Shown here in pieces: positions 55,881 to 63,435 of a stretch of DNA of 64,000 nucleotides. Below the pieces are notes generated by a model. The model was not told the DNA's origin and did not search any database. It worked only from the letters and a program-made list of their open reading frames with translations. Position numbers and translations under genes: made by a program. This stretch comes from Acidobacteriota bacterium (GTDB lineage: Bacteria > Acidobacteriota > Vicinamibacteria > Vicinamibacterales > JAFNAJ01): positions 119,138 to 183,137 of the forward strand of contig JAHDVP010000001.1 in assembly GCA_023384575.1 (NCBI GenBank), given 5' to 3'. Within the stretch, counting starts at the first letter, position 1; every line of letters begins with the position of its first letter.

Positions 55881-58157
55881 TCAGAACCGCACGCTGTAAA
55901 CCAGCTTGAAGTTGCGCCCCATCTCAGGAACGAAGTCCCTGATGAGCGAAAGGTGGTTGCGGTACAGCTTGTTGGCCGCGTTGTCGAGGCGTGCGGTGAT
56001 CGTGTTGACGGCACCACCGGCCACGAACGAATACGACCCGAAGAGCTTCAGCAGACCGTACCCCTCGGTCTCCGTCTCCTCGCCGAAGACCCGTCGCTGG
56101 CTCGACACGGCCACCCACTGCCCGCCGGCCTGCAGGGCGTTCCGCTGGTAGCGAAGGCCGAAGGTGCCCCTGAGCGGCGGGATTCGCGGCAGCGGGTCGC
56201 TGGTCGACTTCAGCTGACCCCGGACGTAATCGACACCGATCTCGGCAATCAGCGTCTCGGTGAGGTGCACGTGCGTGTGCGCCTCGAGGCCGTGAAGCAG
56301 GCTGTCGGCGCCGACGAATTCCTGGAAGGGCAACTCGTCGTGGCCGTGACCGTGGTCGTCGTCGTCGTGACCGTCGTCGTCGCTGTCGTGATCGTCGTCG
56401 AGGTCGTCGTCGTGCCCGAACCGGCGATCGAACTCGTCCTCCGAGATGGGGTTCCGGAAGATGTAGTCCTTGATGTCGTTGCGGAAGAACGCGATCTCAC
56501 CCGTGAGCCTCGGCAGCCGCCAGCGGAACGCGACGTCGAAGCCGAGCGCCTTCTCCGACTTCAGGTCGGGGTTGCCGATCTCGAAGGCGAAGTTGCCGTG
56601 GTGCGGCCCGAAATAATACAGCTCCTCGAGCGCAGGGTTGCGCGCCGCGCGCGCGAGGCTGACCGCCACGGTCGTCTCGTCGGTCGGGCGCAGCAGCAGG
56701 CCGACCGAGCCCGAGAAATTGTCGAAGTCGCGATCGGGCAAGCCGCCCTCCGGGCGGAACGAGGCGCGGTCGTAACGACCGCCGAACTGGAACGTCACGC
56801 GAGGCCAGACGACCTCCTCGTAGGCGAACAGCGCGAACCCGTTCTGGTCGACCGGGGGCGAGAGCGCCTCCTCGCCCTCGGCGGAGAACTGCCGGCTGAG
56901 TCCCCAGACGCCGAGGCTGCCGCGCAGCCGCCCCATCTGTCGGTGCCCGGCGAGCAGTTCGACGTCGACGGTGTTGTTCCTGAACTGCGTGGCAATCTCG
57001 GCGCCCTCCACTTCGTCGTGGCGGTACCGCCTCACACCGAGGGTGCCTCGCACCGACGAGAACACGCCCGACATCTCACGGGCCTCGCCGCGCACGTTGA
57101 ACACGTGCCGGCGCGGCGTCAGCTCGATCTCGCCGTCCTCGATGATCGGAATGCCGTAGCGGGTGTCGTCGTAGGCGTAGCTGCCGCCGACATACCCGCG
57201 CTCGCCGGTGAACGACGCGGCGAGGTTCGCAAAGCCGCTTCGCAGCTGGGTGTTCTCGACGTCACCCTCCGGCGTGCCGACGTCGCCGGCGTGGCGCCCG
57301 CTGCCACCAGCGCGCAGCGCGAACTGCCCGTTGCCCCACAGTACGTCGGCGGCGCCACCGGCCTCGCCGGCCGAACTGGCGAGGTCGACCTGGGCCCCAC
57401 CGCTCACGCCGCTCACCTGGCGGGTCGGAATGACCTCGGAGATGACGTTCACCAGTCCGCCGATGGCGTTGGCCCCGTAGAGCAGCGTCGCCGGGCCCCG
57501 AACCACTTCGAGACGCGTCGCCGCCGCCGGGTTGACGCTGACGCCGTGGTCGCCCGACTGGCTCGACAGATCGCCCGTGCGCTGTCCGTCTTCGAGGACC
57601 AGCACGCGATCGCCGTCCAGACCCCGGATCACCGGCCGCGACGGGGCCGGCCCGAACGAGCGCTCCGCCAGCCCGGGCTGGTCCTTCAAGGTCGTGCCGA
57701 GGCTGCCCGTCAGGCTGACGGCGAGCTGCTGCCCCGCGAGCACGTTGGTCGCCTGGTACGCGTCGAAGCGGTCGCGCGCCTCGGGGCTCACCGACACCAC
57801 CTCGGCATAGTGGAGCTCGGGATCGAGCCGGAGCTCGCCGAGATCGGTCACGGCCGCATCCACCGTCACCTCGCGGCGCATGCCGACATAGCCCCCGGCC
57901 GAGACGACGAGATGGTAGGAGCCAGGCGCCACGTTCCGAAGGACGAATCGGCCATCGGAGGAGGACGTCGCCGTGATGCCCGCCTCCTCGATGAACAGGG
58001 TGGCTCGCGCCACGGGCGCGAGCGTGACGGAGTGGACGAGCCGGCCACGAACCTCGGTGGCCTCCGTGTCCTGCGCCGCCGCTGTCGCGGCCGACATCGT
58101 CAAGAGCAGCCCTACCGCCGCCCAACGGCGGGTCAGGGTCGATACCTGCACGTTCAT
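55881..58157 (-). CDS. TonB-dependent receptor with His/Asp-rich metal loop (ZnuD-like)
   Basis: A 758-residue outer-membrane receptor. After the signal peptide (LLLTMSAATAAAQ) comes a carboxypeptidase-regulatory-like beta domain (about 35-115), the plug (about 130-240; GATLLYGANAIGGLVNVIS-type motif) and the barrel, ending with YSVRF. Residues near 579-607 form a loop almost purely of His and Asp (HDDDLDDDHDSDDDGH onward). Such loops are a hallmark of zinc receptors like ZnuD, so uptake of Zn or a related metal is likely. GGGAGGTG fixes the ATG at 58157. A small Cys-rich secreted protein is encoded upstream. Confidence 0.87.
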   Translation of the reverse strand: MNVQVSTLTRRWAAVGLLLTMSAATAAAQDTEATEVRGRLVHSVTLAPVARATLFIEEAGITATSSSDGRFVLRNVAPGSYHLVVSAGGYVGMRREVTVDAAVTDLGELRLDPELHYAEVVSVSPEARDRFDAYQATNVLAGQQLAVSLTGSLGTTLKDQPGLAERSFGPAPSRPVIRGLDGDRVLVLEDGQRTGDLSSQSGDHGVSVNPAAATRLEVVRGPATLLYGANAIGGLVNVISEVIPTRQVSGVSGGAQVDLASSAGEAGGAADVLWGNGQFALRAGGSGRHAGDVGTPEGDVENTQLRSGFANLAASFTGERGYVGGSYAYDDTRYGIPIIEDGEIELTPRRHVFNVRGEAREMSGVFSSVRGTLGVRRYRHDEVEGAEIATQFRNNTVDVELLAGHRQMGRLRGSLGVWGLSRQFSAEGEEALSPPVDQNGFALFAYEEVVWPRVTFQFGGRYDRASFRPEGGLPDRDFDNFSGSVGLLLRPTDETTVAVSLARAARNPALEELYYFGPHHGNFAFEIGNPDLKSEKALGFDVAFRWRLPRLTGEIAFFRNDIKDYIFRNPISEDEFDRRFGHDDDLDDDHDSDDDGHDDDDHGHGHDELPFQEFVGADSLLHGLEAHTHVHLTETLIAEIGVDYVRGQLKSTSDPLPRIPPLRGTFGLRYQRNALQAGGQWVAVSSQRRVFGEETETEGYGLLKLFGSYSFVAGGAVNTITARLDNAANKLYRNHLSLIRDFVPEMGRNFKLVYSVRF

Positions 58158-58303
58158 GAGAACACCTCCCCAGTGCCGGGAGCCTCCAGGTGCCACGAGG
58201 CGGCCTGGATCAGGACGACGCGCTGGGTACGGGTCGTCGCCGCGACACCCGCCGCCACGGCCGGTCGGGACTCGCGTGGTCTCCGGGCGCGGCGCGGATG
58301 TGG

Positions 58304-58313
58304 TCAATATTGA
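58304..58313. promoter_or_regulatory. A+T-rich palindrome upstream of the TonB receptor gene
   Basis: TCAATATTGA is a perfect 10-bp palindrome 147 bp before the receptor ATG. It stands out from the GC-rich spacer and could be an operator half-site or promoter element; it does not match a full Zur box. Confidence 0.25.
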
Positions 58314-58433
58314 AACGATCGAGTCGAATGCGCTCACAGGTCCGTTCAGCCTGTCAGTCCACCGTTAGCCCGGCCCCAACGTCTGCGACCCGCCCACACG
58401 AAGGGGCGTGGAGGCGCCAGGGGAGCGCTGGAG

Positions 58434-58814
58434 CTAGACGGCTGACGGGTGGACCGAGGCGGGAGGCGGGGAGCGACCCGGGATCCCGAGGGCGACGTGC
58501 AGGTCGCCGAGCGAGACGGGCGGGAAGGCGACAGGGATCGACGGGGCGGCTCCGGCGGCACCAAGCGGTGGTCCGCTGCCAAGGAGACGGAACCCGCTCG
58601 CCCAATGGCAGACGACGCAGTGCTCGGTCTGCGAACACTCGAAGGAAAGGCCGACCGACGGCAGGGTGCTGGTGGTCGCCAACGCCGGGGGCGCGCACGT
58701 CGGGTCGTCGGCGCGGTCGTGGAGTACCGCCAGCGGGCCCAACGGGCCACCGAGCAACACGGCCATCAGAGCCGCGGCAACGCGCACGCGTGCAGACACC
58801 GCCTTCTTCGACAT
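58434..58814 (-). CDS. Small secreted Cys-rich protein upstream of the TonB receptor
   Basis: A 126-residue protein with a signal-like N-terminus (VAAALMAVLLGGPLGPLAVL). Cysteines C40, C60, C66 and C69 and H70 group around SQTEHCVVCHW. This resembles the DUF2946-type small proteins often encoded beside TonB receptors for metals, where a Cys/His cluster may bind copper or zinc. CVVCH also reads as a c-heme motif, but the protein lacks other cytochrome features. The C-terminal third is Pro-rich. It shares the strand with the receptor, 276 bp upstream of it. Confidence 0.65.
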   Translation of the reverse strand: MSKKAVSARVRVAAALMAVLLGGPLGPLAVLHDRADDPTCAPPALATTSTLPSVGLSFECSQTEHCVVCHWASGFRLLGSGPPLGAAGAAPSIPVAFPPVSLGDLHVALGIPGRSPPPASVHPSAV

Positions 58815-59084: not shown

Positions 59085-61499
59085 ATGGCTCAGCCCCTCC
59101 CTCCCGTCGGACGCATCTACGTGGCCGCGGTCATCGCGCTCGGTGGCGCGGCCATCGGTCACTCGGGGTTCGTGGTCGCCCAGACAGCGATCAGCCCGAT
59201 GTGGCTCGTGCTGCTCGCGCTGACGATGTTCAGCAGCACGTTCAGCATCAAGATCCCTCACGCCTCGACCACCATTTCCGTCTCCGAGACGTTCGTCTTC
59301 ATCTGCGCGCTGCTGTTCGGTCCGGCGCCAGCCACGATCGTCATCGCGATCGACGGGCTCGTCATGTCGTGCTGGCGGCGGCATCGCCGCCTGCACCAGG
59401 TGCTGTTCAACACGACGGAGCCGGCGCTCTCGATCTTCGTGGCGGCGCACGTGTTCTTCGCCATGACGGGCCTCGATCCGAACGCGGGCACGCCCATCAA
59501 CGTCGGGGAGCACTTCGGCGCGCTCGTAGCGTTCACCAGCACCTACTTCCTGCTCTCGAGCGGCCTCAACGCCCTGGTGGTGTCGATTCACCACCGCGCC
59601 CCGCTCTGGCCGATCTGGCGGCAGCATTTCGGATGGGTGCTCTTGAACTACTTCGGCGCGACGTCGGTCGCGGCGCTCCTGGTGCACAACACGAGCGACT
59701 TCAACTTCGTCGCGCTCGGCGTCGTGGTCCCGCTGCTCGTCATCTCGTACCTCACGTTCAAGACGTCGATGGCCCGCGTGGAGGACGCAAACAGCCACCT
59801 GGCGCAACTGAACAAGCTGTACCTGTCGACGATCGAGACTCTGGCGATGGCCGTCGACGCGAAGGACCAGATCACGCACGGGCACATCCGCCGCGTGCAG
59901 GCGTACGCGGTCGGTCTCGCCAAGGCGATCGGCCTCTCGGACGACGTCCAGCTGAAGGCGCTCGAGGCCGCGGCCCTGCTGCACGACATGGGGAAGCTGG
60001 CCATCCCCGAGCACATCCTGAACAAGCCGGGCAAGCTGTCGGCGGCCGAGTTCGAGAAGATGAAGAAGCACGCCAGCATCGGTGCGGACATCCTCTCGGC
60101 CATTGAATTCCCCTACCCGGTCGTCCCGATCGTCCGGCACCATCACGAGCGGTGGGATGGCAAGGGGTACCCGCAGGGACTCGCCGGCGCCGAGATCCCG
60201 ATCGGTGCGCGCATCCTGTCGGTCGTCGATTGCTTCGACGCGCTGACCTCAGACCGCCCCTACCGCCGCGCGCTCTCGGACGACGAAGCGATGCAGGTGC
60301 TGCTCGACGACCGCGGCACCGCCTACGACCCGCTCATCGTCGACACGTTCGCGCGCGTACACCGGGACATCGCGCCGCGCGAGGTGGACTTCGGCCCGCA
60401 GCGCGACACGCTCCACGAGATCGCCACCGTCGCGACGCCGTCGCCGCCACCCGCGACGGGGGCCGACCCTTTTGACGAGGCCGAGCCGGCGGTCGCACCG
60501 ATCTTCGATTCGCTGCACGCCTTCTCGGCCCAGTCGCTGCTCACGGACGCCGCGGAGGAAGTGGGCCGGCAGCTGCGCCTCCTGACACCGGCGGCGGCCT
60601 CGGTGTTCTTCATTCACGACGCGCAGACGGCCGAGCTCGTCGCGGCGCACGCGTCGGGGCCCGACGCTGCGATGCTGCGGGGCCTGAGGATCTCGATTGG
60701 CGAGCGGGTCTCGGGTTGGGTCGCGGCGCACCGGCGGACCATCGTCAACTCCGATCCGGTGCTCGATCTCGACACTCCTGGCGATCCCTTCACGTGTGCG
60801 TATCGCAGCTGCCTGAGCACGCCGCTCGTTGGCGCCGACGGTCTCGTGGGGGTGCTGACGCTCTACGCCACCACCGGGCAGGCGTTCACCGACACGGACC
60901 GACGCATCGTCGAGCAGCTCGCGCGCCCGCTGGCGCACCTCGTCCGCGGGGCGCTCGAATTCGAGAAGGTGCAGCAGGTGACCGGGACCTGCGCCATCAG
61001 CGGCCTGCCCGAGTTCGCGACCACGATCTCGGCGGCGAGCGTCTGCCCGCACCCGGTGGCCGCCATCGCCCTGTACATCACCGCGCCCGCCGACGCCGTG
61101 CCCGACGATCTCCCGGAGCAGTGGCTGGCGCGCGCGGCCGTCGCGCTGCGACGCGACTTCCGCGTCACCGACGGCCTGTATCGCGATGGCAGGAACGGAC
61201 TGCTCGCCGTGTTGCCGCACGCCAACGAGATGGCCGCCCTGGCCATCGCCGATCGGGCGCGCGATCGCCTGCTCGACGCGCTGGCCTCGGGACCGGCCAG
61301 CGTCGGAAGGACGGTGACGCTCGAGATCGGCGTGGCGACCTCGCCGGCCGACGGTGACCGGATCGGCCTCGTGATCGAGGCGGCGCAGCGGCGGGCCCGC
61401 CCGGTCGGGTACGACCAGGTCGAACGCGGGGCGACGGAGTCGCCTCGCCAGGCGATGCTCTTCGAGGACCGGGAACTGCGGATCGTCCGGGCATCGTAA
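59085..61499 (+). CDS. Membrane HD-GYP protein with GAF and degenerate GGDEF-like domain
   Basis: An 804-residue signalling protein. The N-terminal 225 residues hold six or seven membrane helices. HD-GYP follows (about 245-425): THGHIRRV, H300-D301 and K304 in LLHDMGK, and HHHERWDGKGYP are all present, so c-di-GMP phosphodiesterase activity is plausible. A GAF-like domain (about 480-625) comes next. The last domain (about 645-790) has GGDEF topology but YRDGRNGLLAVLP where the active motif should be, so cyclase activity is unlikely. A related protein is encoded 106 bp downstream. Confidence 0.9.
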   Translation: MAQPLPPVGRIYVAAVIALGGAAIGHSGFVVAQTAISPMWLVLLALTMFSSTFSIKIPHASTTISVSETFVFICALLFGPAPATIVIAIDGLVMSCWRRHRRLHQVLFNTTEPALSIFVAAHVFFAMTGLDPNAGTPINVGEHFGALVAFTSTYFLLSSGLNALVVSIHHRAPLWPIWRQHFGWVLLNYFGATSVAALLVHNTSDFNFVALGVVVPLLVISYLTFKTSMARVEDANSHLAQLNKLYLSTIETLAMAVDAKDQITHGHIRRVQAYAVGLAKAIGLSDDVQLKALEAAALLHDMGKLAIPEHILNKPGKLSAAEFEKMKKHASIGADILSAIEFPYPVVPIVRHHHERWDGKGYPQGLAGAEIPIGARILSVVDCFDALTSDRPYRRALSDDEAMQVLLDDRGTAYDPLIVDTFARVHRDIAPREVDFGPQRDTLHEIATVATPSPPPATGADPFDEAEPAVAPIFDSLHAFSAQSLLTDAAEEVGRQLRLLTPAAASVFFIHDAQTAELVAAHASGPDAAMLRGLRISIGERVSGWVAAHRRTIVNSDPVLDLDTPGDPFTCAYRSCLSTPLVGADGLVGVLTLYATTGQAFTDTDRRIVEQLARPLAHLVRGALEFEKVQQVTGTCAISGLPEFATTISAASVCPHPVAAIALYITAPADAVPDDLPEQWLARAAVALRRDFRVTDGLYRDGRNGLLAVLPHANEMAALAIADRARDRLLDALASGPASVGRTVTLEIGVATSPADGDRIGLVIEAAQRRARPVGYDQVERGATESPRQAMLFEDRELRIVRAS

Positions 61500-61605
61500 A
61501 CGGGTAGGCGCGTCTCACCCCAGCCGACGAGCCTATCGTGCAGCGTGGCGCGACGCCACCGACCAGACGCCGCCTCGTCACGGTTCGAGGTGGACGCCGA
61601 GCCCC

Positions 61606-63435
61606 ATGGATCCGTCGATTCCAGGACATCCCGCTGGCCGTCCGGCCCCCGGCACGGGGCGCAACCGCCCCGAGCCGGATGTCCGCGCGACCGACGCCGA
61701 GCGGATCGCGGCGCTCGAGGCGGCGCTCGCCACCGAGCGCGAAGTGGTCGCCCGGCTCGTGCGGGCGATCGACGCCAAGTACCAGGTGGAACCGGATCGG
61801 GCGGCGACGCTCGTCCGGCTCACAGAAGCGCTCGGCCGCGCGGCGGGCCTCGACCGCGCCGACCTCGAGGCGCTGCGGTCGGCAGCTCTGCTCCACGACG
61901 TCGGCCAGCTCGTGGTCCCGGTGGCGACGCTCGCCAAGCCGGGGCCGCTCTCGGCCGACGAGTTCGCGCAGGTGCGCCTCCACCCCCGCGTCGCTGCCGA
62001 ACTGCTCGCTGACATCCCTGGCGCCGCCGCCATCGCGGCGATCGTCCGGGCCCATCACGAGCGCTGGGACGGGCTGGGCTACCCGGATGGCCTGCGCGGT
62101 GAGGCCATTCCGCTCGGCGCGCGGATCCTCGCGGTCGTCGATGCCTTCACCGCGATGATTCGGCCGCGCCCGCACCGCGATGCCCGCTCGCGGGCCGCCG
62201 CCGCCGCGGCCCTGCAGCACGAGGCCGGCAAGGCCTTCGATCCCACCGTCGTGACCTGCTTCCTCGAGCTGCTGTCCCGGCTGCCGACTTCATCGGAGGA
62301 CGGGGGGGTGTCGCCGACCGCTCGAGGCGAGCGCGCCTGCACGATGATCGCGCAGGCCCATCGAGAGAACGTGGCCTTCCATGAGCTGGCCTACGCCCTC
62401 GGATCGAGCCTCGACCTGCCTCACGCGATCGCCACGATCTCCGAGACGCTCGTCCCGATCCTGCCGCACGAGACCTGCGCCCTCTTGATGCCCGACCGTC
62501 ACGGCGCCTTGCGATGCCGCGCGGCCCACGGCATGGACGCCGACCGCCTGGCACAGGCGGTCTGGCCGGCCGATTCTGCGGTGACGCAGCAACTCCTGCA
62601 GCAGCGCCGCGTCGTGTCGTACGCCGACGACGACGGGTCGGGGCCCGATGGCCTGGCCGGCCGTTCGGGTGCGGCTTCGGCCGTCCTCGTTCCGCTCTGC
62701 GGCTCCGCAACCCCTGTCGGGGCGTTCGGAGTCTTCTCGCGTGCACCGGCCGCCTTCTCGGCCGATCACGAGCGCGTGCTGCTGCACGTCTGCGAGAACT
62801 TCGCGGCGCGTCTGATCAACGTGCTGCACTTCGAACAGGCCCGCGAGGATGCCCTGACCGACGCCCTGACGGGGTTGCCCAACACGCGTTTCCTGTCGAT
62901 GCACCTCACCCAGGAACTCGCGCGGGCGACACGGCAGCGATCGCAGCTGGCGCTGCTCGTGATCGATCTCGACGACTTCAAGCGGGTGAACGACACCGAT
63001 GGCCACGCGATGGGCGACCGGCTGCTCGTCGAGGTCGCGCGAGCGCTCGAGGCCTCGGTGCGCCCCTATGACGTGTGCGCGCGCTATGCGGGCGACGAGT
63101 TCGTCGTGATGCTGCCCGAGTGCGGGCCGGACGAGGCCGGGGAGCGGCAGCACGAACTGGCCGCCGCCATCGCACGCGTGCGGGTCCACGTGGCAGCGGG
63201 TCGCGTGATTTCGGTCACGGCCAGCGTGGGAGCGGCGGTCTTCCCCGACGATGGCGACCGGTACGAGGATCTGCTGCAGGTGGCCGACCGGCGCATGTAC
63301 TCCAGCAAGACCACCACCAAGGCGCACCCAACGCCCCTGCCGGCCCTGCCGCCGCTGCCGGCACGTCGGGAGGAGCCATCGATCGAGGTGGTGCTCGATC
63401 GGTGGTTGAGGGACATCCGGCAGCGGGTGCAGTGA
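61606..63435 (+). CDS. Soluble protein with degenerate HD-GYP, GAF and intact GGDEF
   Basis: A 609-residue protein repeating the domain order of its neighbour without membrane helices. The HD-GYP part (about 45-225) keeps H97-D98 and HHERWDGLGYP but has HDVGQ instead of HDxGK and VEPDRAATLV where the first conserved His is expected, so it is probably not an active phosphodiesterase. GAF follows (about 255-405). The C-terminal GGDEF domain is intact: AGDEF at 495-499, DLDDFKRVNDTDGHAMGD and an RPYD inhibitory-site motif at the right distance. It is therefore likely a feedback-inhibited diguanylate cyclase. Confidence 0.92.
   Translation: MDPSIPGHPAGRPAPGTGRNRPEPDVRATDAERIAALEAALATEREVVARLVRAIDAKYQVEPDRAATLVRLTEALGRAAGLDRADLEALRSAALLHDVGQLVVPVATLAKPGPLSADEFAQVRLHPRVAAELLADIPGAAAIAAIVRAHHERWDGLGYPDGLRGEAIPLGARILAVVDAFTAMIRPRPHRDARSRAAAAAALQHEAGKAFDPTVVTCFLELLSRLPTSSEDGGVSPTARGERACTMIAQAHRENVAFHELAYALGSSLDLPHAIATISETLVPILPHETCALLMPDRHGALRCRAAHGMDADRLAQAVWPADSAVTQQLLQQRRVVSYADDDGSGPDGLAGRSGAASAVLVPLCGSATPVGAFGVFSRAPAAFSADHERVLLHVCENFAARLINVLHFEQAREDALTDALTGLPNTRFLSMHLTQELARATRQRSQLALLVIDLDDFKRVNDTDGHAMGDRLLVEVARALEASVRPYDVCARYAGDEFVVMLPECGPDEAGERQHELAAAIARVRVHVAAGRVISVTASVGAAVFPDDGDRYEDLLQVADRRMYSSKTTTKAHPTPLPALPPLPARREEPSIEVVLDRWLRDIRQRVQ

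What the first reader, a model, noticed from the sequence alone, without database searches (positions are those of the whole stretch)
59085..63435. Adjacent c-di-GMP proteins with reciprocal loss of active sites
Two neighbouring genes encode the same domain order (HD-GYP, GAF, GGDEF). In the membrane protein the HD-GYP motifs are intact while GGDEF is replaced by RDGRN. In the soluble protein GGDEF is intact with an inhibitory RxxD site, while HD-GYP lost the HDxGK lysine and the first conserved His. This looks like duplication followed by division of labour: one makes and the other destroys c-di-GMP, each keeping a dead domain that may sense the nucleotide or bind the partner.
Basis: partly seen in the sequence, partly recalled or inferred. 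Interest (0 to 1): 0.65.

Follow-up and report, generated by a model that had tools for sequence, protein, structure and literature searches.

The report
Reciprocally half-dead c-di-GMP enzyme pair
Two neighbouring genes of an acidobacterium encode the same three signalling domains, but each protein has kept only the active site the other has lost, so one should make and the other destroy the signal c-di-GMP; this mirror-image arrangement recurs in related bacteria and looks like a matched producer–destroyer pair, although nothing has been assayed.

Summary
Protein A (59085–61499) is a membrane HD-GYP–GAF–GGDEF protein. All ten HD-GYP residues essential in PmGH are intact; its GGDEF site is destroyed (GRNGL, metal Asp gone). 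Protein B (61606–63435) is soluble: a cyclase domain with AGDEF and I-site RPYD, and an HD-GYP domain that lost D183, H189, K225 and D308.

Local duplication is rejected: A and B belong to two old paralogous clades of the order. The A clade is nearly always a phosphodiesterase with decayed or absent GGDEF; the B clade keeps an intact cyclase motif. Eleven tandem A-type/B-type loci were found; the downstream HD-GYP is degenerate in ten and intact in one same-family genome, so reciprocity is frequent, not universal. Constraint between orthologues is reciprocal too (A: HD-GYP 83–87%, GGDEF 46–54%; B: HD-GYP 48–62%, GGDEF 65–71%).

Best reading: an antagonistic synthase/hydrolase gene pair whose dead domains probably sense c-di-GMP. 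New variant of a known kind; biochemically untested.

The parts
59085..61499 (+). Protein A, 804 aa: membrane-bound HD-GYP phosphodiesterase with GAF and degenerate GGDEF
59085..59759 (+). N-terminal membrane module of A (5 predicted TM stretches; weakly MASE9-like; also found in front of a hybrid histidine kinase in locus L127)
59802..60374 (+). HD-GYP domain of A, all ten catalytic/metal residues intact
60543..60938 (+). GAF domain of A
60984..61409 (+). Degenerate GGDEF domain of A: motif GRNGL (from 61188), metal Asp lost, I-site RVTD (from 61161) and R390-equivalent R724 kept
61606..63435 (+). Protein B, 609 aa: soluble diguanylate cyclase with GAF and degenerate HD-GYP
61738..62280 (+). 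Degenerate HD-GYP domain of B: D183Y, H189R (R65), K225Q (Q101), D308T; HD, H250, HH, D305, GYP, I294, R314 kept
62413..62805 (+). GAF domain of B
62851..63318 (+). Intact GGDEF domain of B: AGDEF, RPYD I-site, D454/N462/D471

Best explanation
The two genes encode an antagonistic pair. A is a membrane-anchored HD-GYP phosphodiesterase that degrades c-di-GMP; its GGDEF domain cannot make c-di-GMP but has kept the I-site and most likely serves as a c-di-GMP-responsive regulatory domain. B is a cytosolic diguanylate cyclase with a product-inhibition site; its HD-GYP domain cannot hydrolyse but has kept the nucleotide-contact residues and probably acts as a second sensor or as a dimerisation/partner surface. 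Both read signals through GAF domains. The pair did not arise by splitting a fresh duplicate: a phosphodiesterase lineage (A) and a cyclase lineage (B), both spread through the order, stand side by side in some genomes, and in these the opposite activity of B is usually lost. Shown: domain order, residue losses and retentions, conservation, adjacency, phylogeny. Inferred: enzyme activities, nucleotide sensing, co-expression and physical interaction.
For: Residues: A retains all ten PmGH residues whose alanine mutants abolish or strongly reduce hydrolysis, B lost four of them (mutant data in PMC4159591: H189A, K225A, D183A and D308A essentially abolish activity). B retains the cyclase site, and AGDEF is active in VCA0965 (PMC3974145); D471 (PleD D344) speaks against the Hypr type. 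Selection: orthologue identity is reciprocal, A HD-GYP 83-87% against dead GGDEF 46-54%, B GGDEF 65-71% against dead HD-GYP 48-62%. Clade-wide: 37 of 39 A-clade HD-GYPs have all ten residues and the other two lack one, while only 1 of 39 keeps an intact [AG]GDEF; in the B clade every complete protein keeps [AGV]GDE[FY]. Pairing: 11 tandem A-type/B-type loci among the loci read in this order, downstream K225 lost in 10 of 11 against 15 of 81 non-adjacent B-clade rows (two or more catalytic residues lost: 10 of 11 against 23 of 81). I-site: in 21 decayed GGDEFs of the A lineage the R359/D362/R390 equivalents are kept in 18, 19 and 16 and rank 6th, 4th and 13th of 137 columns. Precedents: PopA (dead GGDEF with I-site as receptor, PMC5052742), DvhD (dead HD-GYP as receptor, PMC13090378).
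Against: No biochemistry. B of G002, downstream of an A orthologue, has an intact HD-GYP, so loss is not required by pairing. K225 loss needs only about five changes on the tree and most cases sit in one clade; the phylogenetically independent-pairs test had no power, so the adjacency/loss association may be largely shared ancestry. Several degenerate B-types have no adjacent A (L150, L184, L229, L231, L233 and the L165-L169 clade). RpfG is an active HD-GYP without the H189 ligand (PMC4159591), so H189 loss alone proves nothing; the case rests on the combination with K225, D183 and D308. I-site residues could be kept for structural reasons. B lacks the R390 equivalent (E517). Consensus scans give no evidence for or against co-transcription.
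Confidence: 0.62

Rival explanations
1. Relaxed decay without function: hybrid HD-GYP-GAF-GGDEF proteins often run on one active domain and the other simply drifts; adjacency is an accident of old gene order and the dead domains sense nothing.
For: Sixteen of 39 A-clade rows have no detectable GGDEF, so the domain is dispensable; B is very divergent (end branch 1.6-2.1 against a median of 0.2-0.3); GAF of B is even less conserved than its HD-GYP (28-37%).
Against: I-site triad kept selectively in the decayed GGDEFs; nucleotide-contact residues GYP/I/R/R kept in all 11 downstream partners including the ten degenerate ones; adjacency in 11 loci is far above chance for families with one to a few members per genome (inference).
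Confidence: 0.25
2. Recent local duplication followed by subfunctionalisation.
For: Same domain order, adjacency, complementary losses.
Against: A+B as sisters rejected, log-likelihood 76.7 lower, p-AU 4.7e-62; all family A's + B's as one clade rejected, p 7e-4; each has its near relatives in other families of the order. An ancient duplication before the order's radiation is not excluded.
Confidence: 0.05
3. B's HD-GYP is still an active hydrolase with an altered metal site, making B bifunctional.
For: Keeps H221, D222, H250, H276, H277, D305, GYP and R314; RpfG lacks H189 and is active (PMC4159591); the G002 orthologue is intact.
Against: Simultaneous loss of D183, H189, K225 and D308, each essential in PmGH; the HD-GYP of B is less conserved than its GGDEF.
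Confidence: 0.08

Closest known systems
DosC/DosP (DgcO/PdeO) operon pair of E. coli
   Same: Antagonistic cyclase and phosphodiesterase encoded in one operon (PMC5635695); DosP also carries a GGDEF domain beside its hydrolase (own knowledge: degenerate)
   Different: DosC and DosP do not share a domain order; the hydrolase is EAL, not HD-GYP; sensors are haem domains; DosC carries no dead hydrolase domain (own knowledge)
PmGH (GAF-HD-GYP, PDB 4MCW/4MDZ)
   Same: A's HD-GYP matches it over the whole domain (E 1e-38) and keeps the catalytic set except E185 (I263 in A)
   Different: PmGH has GAF before HD-GYP and no GGDEF; A is predicted binuclear because E185 is missing
PopA (Caulobacter), dead GGDEF with intact I-site
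   Same: Active site lost, I-site retained
   Different: In A the dead GGDEF is fused to an intact HD-GYP hydrolase
DvhD (Desulfovibrio), dead HD-GYP c-di-GMP receptor, PDB 9RBZ
   Same: Dead HD-GYP keeping nucleotide contacts; among the structural matches of B
   Different: DvhD lost HD and HH themselves; B keeps these and lost D183/H189/K225/D308; B also carries an intact cyclase
VCA0965 (V. cholerae) AGDEF cyclase
   Same: AGDEF active site with RxxD
   Different: No HD-GYP domain is mentioned for it in the abstract read

Membership tests
HD-GYP c-di-GMP phosphodiesterase (protein A) | HD, HDxxK, H250, HH, D305, HHExxDGxGYP, I294 | tested here: met
HD-GYP c-di-GMP phosphodiesterase (protein A) | E185 third-metal ligand (trinuclear subgroup only) | tested here: not met
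   I263 in A; PMC4159591 predicts a binuclear site for members without E/D here
HD-GYP c-di-GMP phosphodiesterase (protein A) | hydrolysis of c-di-GMP | not testable with these tools
   needs purified protein
HD-GYP c-di-GMP phosphodiesterase (protein B) | catalytic set D183, H189, K225, D308 | tested here: not met
   Y59, R65, Q101, T182
Diguanylate cyclase (protein B) | [GA]G[DE]EF, metal Asp, N335, D344 | tested here: met
   AGDEF 495-499, D454, N462, D471
Diguanylate cyclase (protein A) | [GA]G[DE]EF and metal Asp | tested here: not met
   GRNGL; metal Asp replaced by Tyr
Hypr (cGAMP-making) GGDEF | Ser at PleD D344 | tested here: not met
   B has D471 there (rule from PMC12943098)
I-site c-di-GMP receptor of the PopA type (A's dead GGDEF) | RxxD plus R390 kept while the active site is lost | tested here: met
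   R693, D696, R724
I-site c-di-GMP receptor of the PopA type (A's dead GGDEF) | binding of c-di-GMP | not testable with these tools
   needs ITC or similar
Antagonistic DGC/PDE gene pair | adjacent, same strand, conserved together | tested here: met
   window, G002, G001 and eight further tandem loci
Antagonistic DGC/PDE gene pair | co-transcription and interaction | not testable with these tools
   106 bp gap; consensus scans uninformative

The most novel reading that the evidence does not exclude
A and B form a heteromeric c-di-GMP homeostat: same-architecture partners each supply the live domain the other lacks, and both dead domains bind c-di-GMP, so that rising c-di-GMP switches off B's cyclase through its I-site and switches on A's hydrolase through its dead GGDEF I-site, while B's dead HD-GYP binds nucleotide or docks onto A. 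The arrangement would have been reached more than once in this order of Acidobacteriota.
Probability: 0.25. Interest if true: 0.7.

Novelty: new variant of a known kind. Interest (0 to 1): 0.42.

Why it matters
Hybrid c-di-GMP proteins with one dead domain are common, but why the dead half is kept is usually unclear. Here a natural series of relatives shows the same architecture with both sites live, with one dead, with the dead domain missing, and as tandem partners with mirror-image losses. The dead GGDEF loses its active site but keeps its I-site, and the dead HD-GYP loses catalytic residues but keeps nucleotide contacts, which makes sensing by dead domains directly testable in a set of proteins with built-in controls (G042 A with intact YAGDEF; G002 B with intact HD-GYP).

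Tried and rejected
The single genome-contig scan returned mostly distant HD-GYP proteins and one useful relative, a Vicinamibacteraceae MAG, L049. Consensus promoter/terminator scans were uninformative. The independent-pairs test of adjacency against HD-GYP loss had no power. The place of B in the tree is unstable (long branch: with the L165-L169 clade, with L170/L248); the three family B's as one clade is not rejected (p-AU 0.107). Hypr/cGAMP synthesis by B was considered and set aside because of D471. Sequencing error in A's GGDEF was rejected because orthologues are degenerate there in different ways. Literature searches found no description of this architecture or of c-di-GMP in this group: no paper for 'HD-GYP-GAF-GGDEF', for Vicinamibact* with c-di-GMP, or for HD-GYP + GGDEF + degenerate + Acidobacteri*, in the held library only.
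Full report
OBSERVATION. The window carries two ORFs on the + strand, A (59085-61499, 804 aa) and B (61606-63435, 609 aa), separated by 106 bp. Pfam gives HD-GYP, GAF and GGDEF in that order in both. A begins with a hydrophobic module of five predicted TM stretches; B has none. The host is probably a member of the Vicinamibacteraceae (Acidobacteriota): G003 lies in the window genome's family, and the Vicinamibacteraceae MAG contig L049 has the same length (19,860 bases) and an A relative at the same end as the G003 contig (inference). The window's genome has 18 GGDEF matches, 7 HD_5 matches and 6 EAL matches.

ACTIVE SITES. Residues were mapped onto PmGH (4MCW) and PleD numbering. A's HD-GYP keeps D183, H189, H221, D222, K225, H250, H276, H277, D305 and D308; E185 is Ile, so a binuclear centre is expected by the rule of PMC4159591. 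B's HD-GYP has Y, R, Q and T in place of D183, H189, K225 and D308, but keeps H221, D222, H250, H276, H277, D305 and the ligand residues G284, Y285, P286, I294, R314 (K317 is Arg in both A and B). In PmGH, alanine at H189, K225, D183 or D308 essentially abolishes activity, while alanine at the ligand residues does not (PMC4159591). One caution from the same paper: RpfG, an active enzyme, lacks the H189 ligand. B's cyclase site is complete: AGDEF, metal D454, N462, D471, and RPYD. AGDEF is active in VCA0965 (PMC3974145). A's GGDEF position reads GRNGL and its metal Asp is gone.

A's dead GGDEF keeps the I-site: R693 and D696 (RxxD) and R724 (PleD R390). In 21 decayed GGDEFs of the A lineage these are kept in 18, 19 and 16 sequences and rank 6th, 4th and 13th of 137 columns by conservation, while the GGDEF motif and metal residues are scrambled in many different ways. 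R390 is Glu or Asp in B and in the three other B-clade GGDEFs compared, so it is not needed for the fold. This is the pattern expected of a domain that stopped making c-di-GMP but still binds it, as PopA does (PMC5052742). It is a sequence argument, not corrected for relatedness; binding is not shown. AlphaFold models (A: mean pLDDT 77.8; B: 81.3) show at A's C-terminus a strand/helix pattern compatible with GGDEF at moderate confidence. Foldseek matches B's GGDEF and HD-GYP, including c-di-GMP-bound DvhD, and A's HD-GYP to DvhD, PA4781 and PmGH; no isolated GGDEF structure appears among the best 50 for A, so the fold of A's last domain rests on the weak Pfam match and on the alignment with relatives that still have the motif.

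RELATIVES. A and B were searched against 100 relatives and then A, and a B-type partner, against the 162 genomes held of the order; 120 regions were fetched and read for motifs and neighbours. On a tree of 131 HD-GYP+GAF regions two deep clades appear (100/100 support in the smaller careful tree). The A clade (39 rows): 37 have all ten HD-GYP residues, only one has an intact YAGDEF (G042, L116), 16 have no detectable GGDEF (some of these are short or broken frames) and the rest show altered motifs (SSSDEL, YASDEF, TGEHEV, PSDQEL, DGRNGL and so on). The B clade (92 rows): every complete protein has an intact cyclase motif; the HD-GYP is intact in most and degenerate in subclades. The A clade therefore reads as a phosphodiesterase lineage shedding its cyclase, and the B clade as a cyclase lineage, part of which has lost its hydrolase.

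THE PAIR. Eleven tandem loci were found, always an A-clade HD-GYP (in three of them a stand-alone one) upstream and a B-clade protein downstream: the window, G002 (L112), G001 (L113 and L114), G088 (L121), G007 (L151), G019 (L153), G029 (L155), G038 (L157), G112 (L232) and G113 (L235). In G003 the contig ends about 190 bp after A. The downstream HD-GYP is degenerate in ten of eleven: H189R/K225Q (with D183, D308) in the window, H189D/K225T (with D183) in G001 L113, K225N with D308 and sometimes D183 or H189 in the rest; G002 is fully intact. Among non-adjacent B-clade rows 15 of 81 lack K225 (Fisher p 4e-6), but this ignores relatedness: K225 loss needs about five changes on the tree and the independent-pairs test had no power. 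The strongest statement allowed is that reciprocal pairs recur in at least three families (f1, f5, f6), with different substitutions in the window-type pairs of f1 from those in the K225N pairs.

CONSTRAINT. Between window and family orthologues A's HD-GYP is 83-87% identical but its GGDEF 46-54%; B's GGDEF is 65-71% but its HD-GYP 48-62%. Each protein is conserved where the residues say it is active. B's GAF is still less conserved (28-37%), so the dead HD-GYP of B is not its fastest part.

ORIGIN. Trees holding A and B as sisters (log-likelihood 76.7 lower, p-AU 4.7e-62) or all family A's and B's as one clade (p 7e-4) are rejected. Recent local duplication is out; an ancient duplication before the radiation of the order is possible. 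B sits on a long branch and its exact place is unsure; its two best matches by score are the syntenic B's of G002 and G001, and one clade of the three family B's is not rejected (p 0.107).

MECHANISM. Most likely A hydrolyses c-di-GMP at the membrane and B makes it in the cytosol; B is limited by its I-site; A's dead GGDEF may sense c-di-GMP and set hydrolase activity; B's dead HD-GYP may bind nucleotide, as dead DvhD does (PMC13090378), or serve in dimerisation. GAF ligands are unknown. Activities, sensing, co-expression and contact are inferred.

KNOWN AND NEW. Antagonistic cyclase/hydrolase operon pairs are known (DosC/DosP, PMC5635695), as are dead GGDEF and dead HD-GYP receptors. A tandem pair with the same domain order and reciprocal dead sites, each dead domain keeping nucleotide-binding residues, was not found in the literature held. 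New variant of a known kind; moderate interest.

Noticed in passing
L116 (G042:C19), L255 (G102:C33), L122, L161: A-clade members with an intact or only slightly altered GGDEF motif (YAGDEF, YDGDEF, YASDEF, STSDEF), a natural decay series down to complete loss in proteins of about 640-680 aa.
   Followed up: partly
L121 (4355-5089), L232 (2679-3473), L235 (6195-7016): Stand-alone intact HD-GYP ORFs of about 245-274 aa lie directly upstream of a membrane HD-GYP-GGDEF protein whose HD-GYP has HDxxN; the upstream hydrolase lacks the membrane, GAF and GGDEF parts.
   Followed up: partly
L127 (6639-9086): In G014 the gene upstream of an HDxxN B-type protein is a hybrid histidine kinase-like protein that carries the same N-terminal membrane module as protein A, so the module is shared between kinases and c-di-GMP proteins.
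   Followed up: no
L165-L169: Genomes of family f4 (two of them single-contig assemblies) carry a lone B-type protein with HD mutated to LD or ID, H189R and K225Q and an intact YGGDEF; they share R and Q with the window's B.
   Followed up: partly
L242-L244 (G143, G144, G146): HD-GYP-GAF-GGDEF proteins of about 840 aa with both active sites intact (YGGDEF, HHDK), candidates for bifunctional enzymes.
   Followed up: no
L195 (G000:C27): Another HD-GYP protein of the window's genome has lost H250 and HH (reads V-A-F) and has Glu for D183, a further likely dead HD-GYP.
   Followed up: no
55881-58337 (-): TonB-dependent-receptor-like ORF with a very Asp/His-rich stretch (HDDDLDDDHDSDDDGHDDDDHGHGHDE), suggestive of metal uptake, upstream of the pair.
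   Followed up: no
58434-58814 (-): Small ORF with a signal-peptide-like start and a CxxCH motif (CVVCH) between the receptor and protein A.
   Followed up: no
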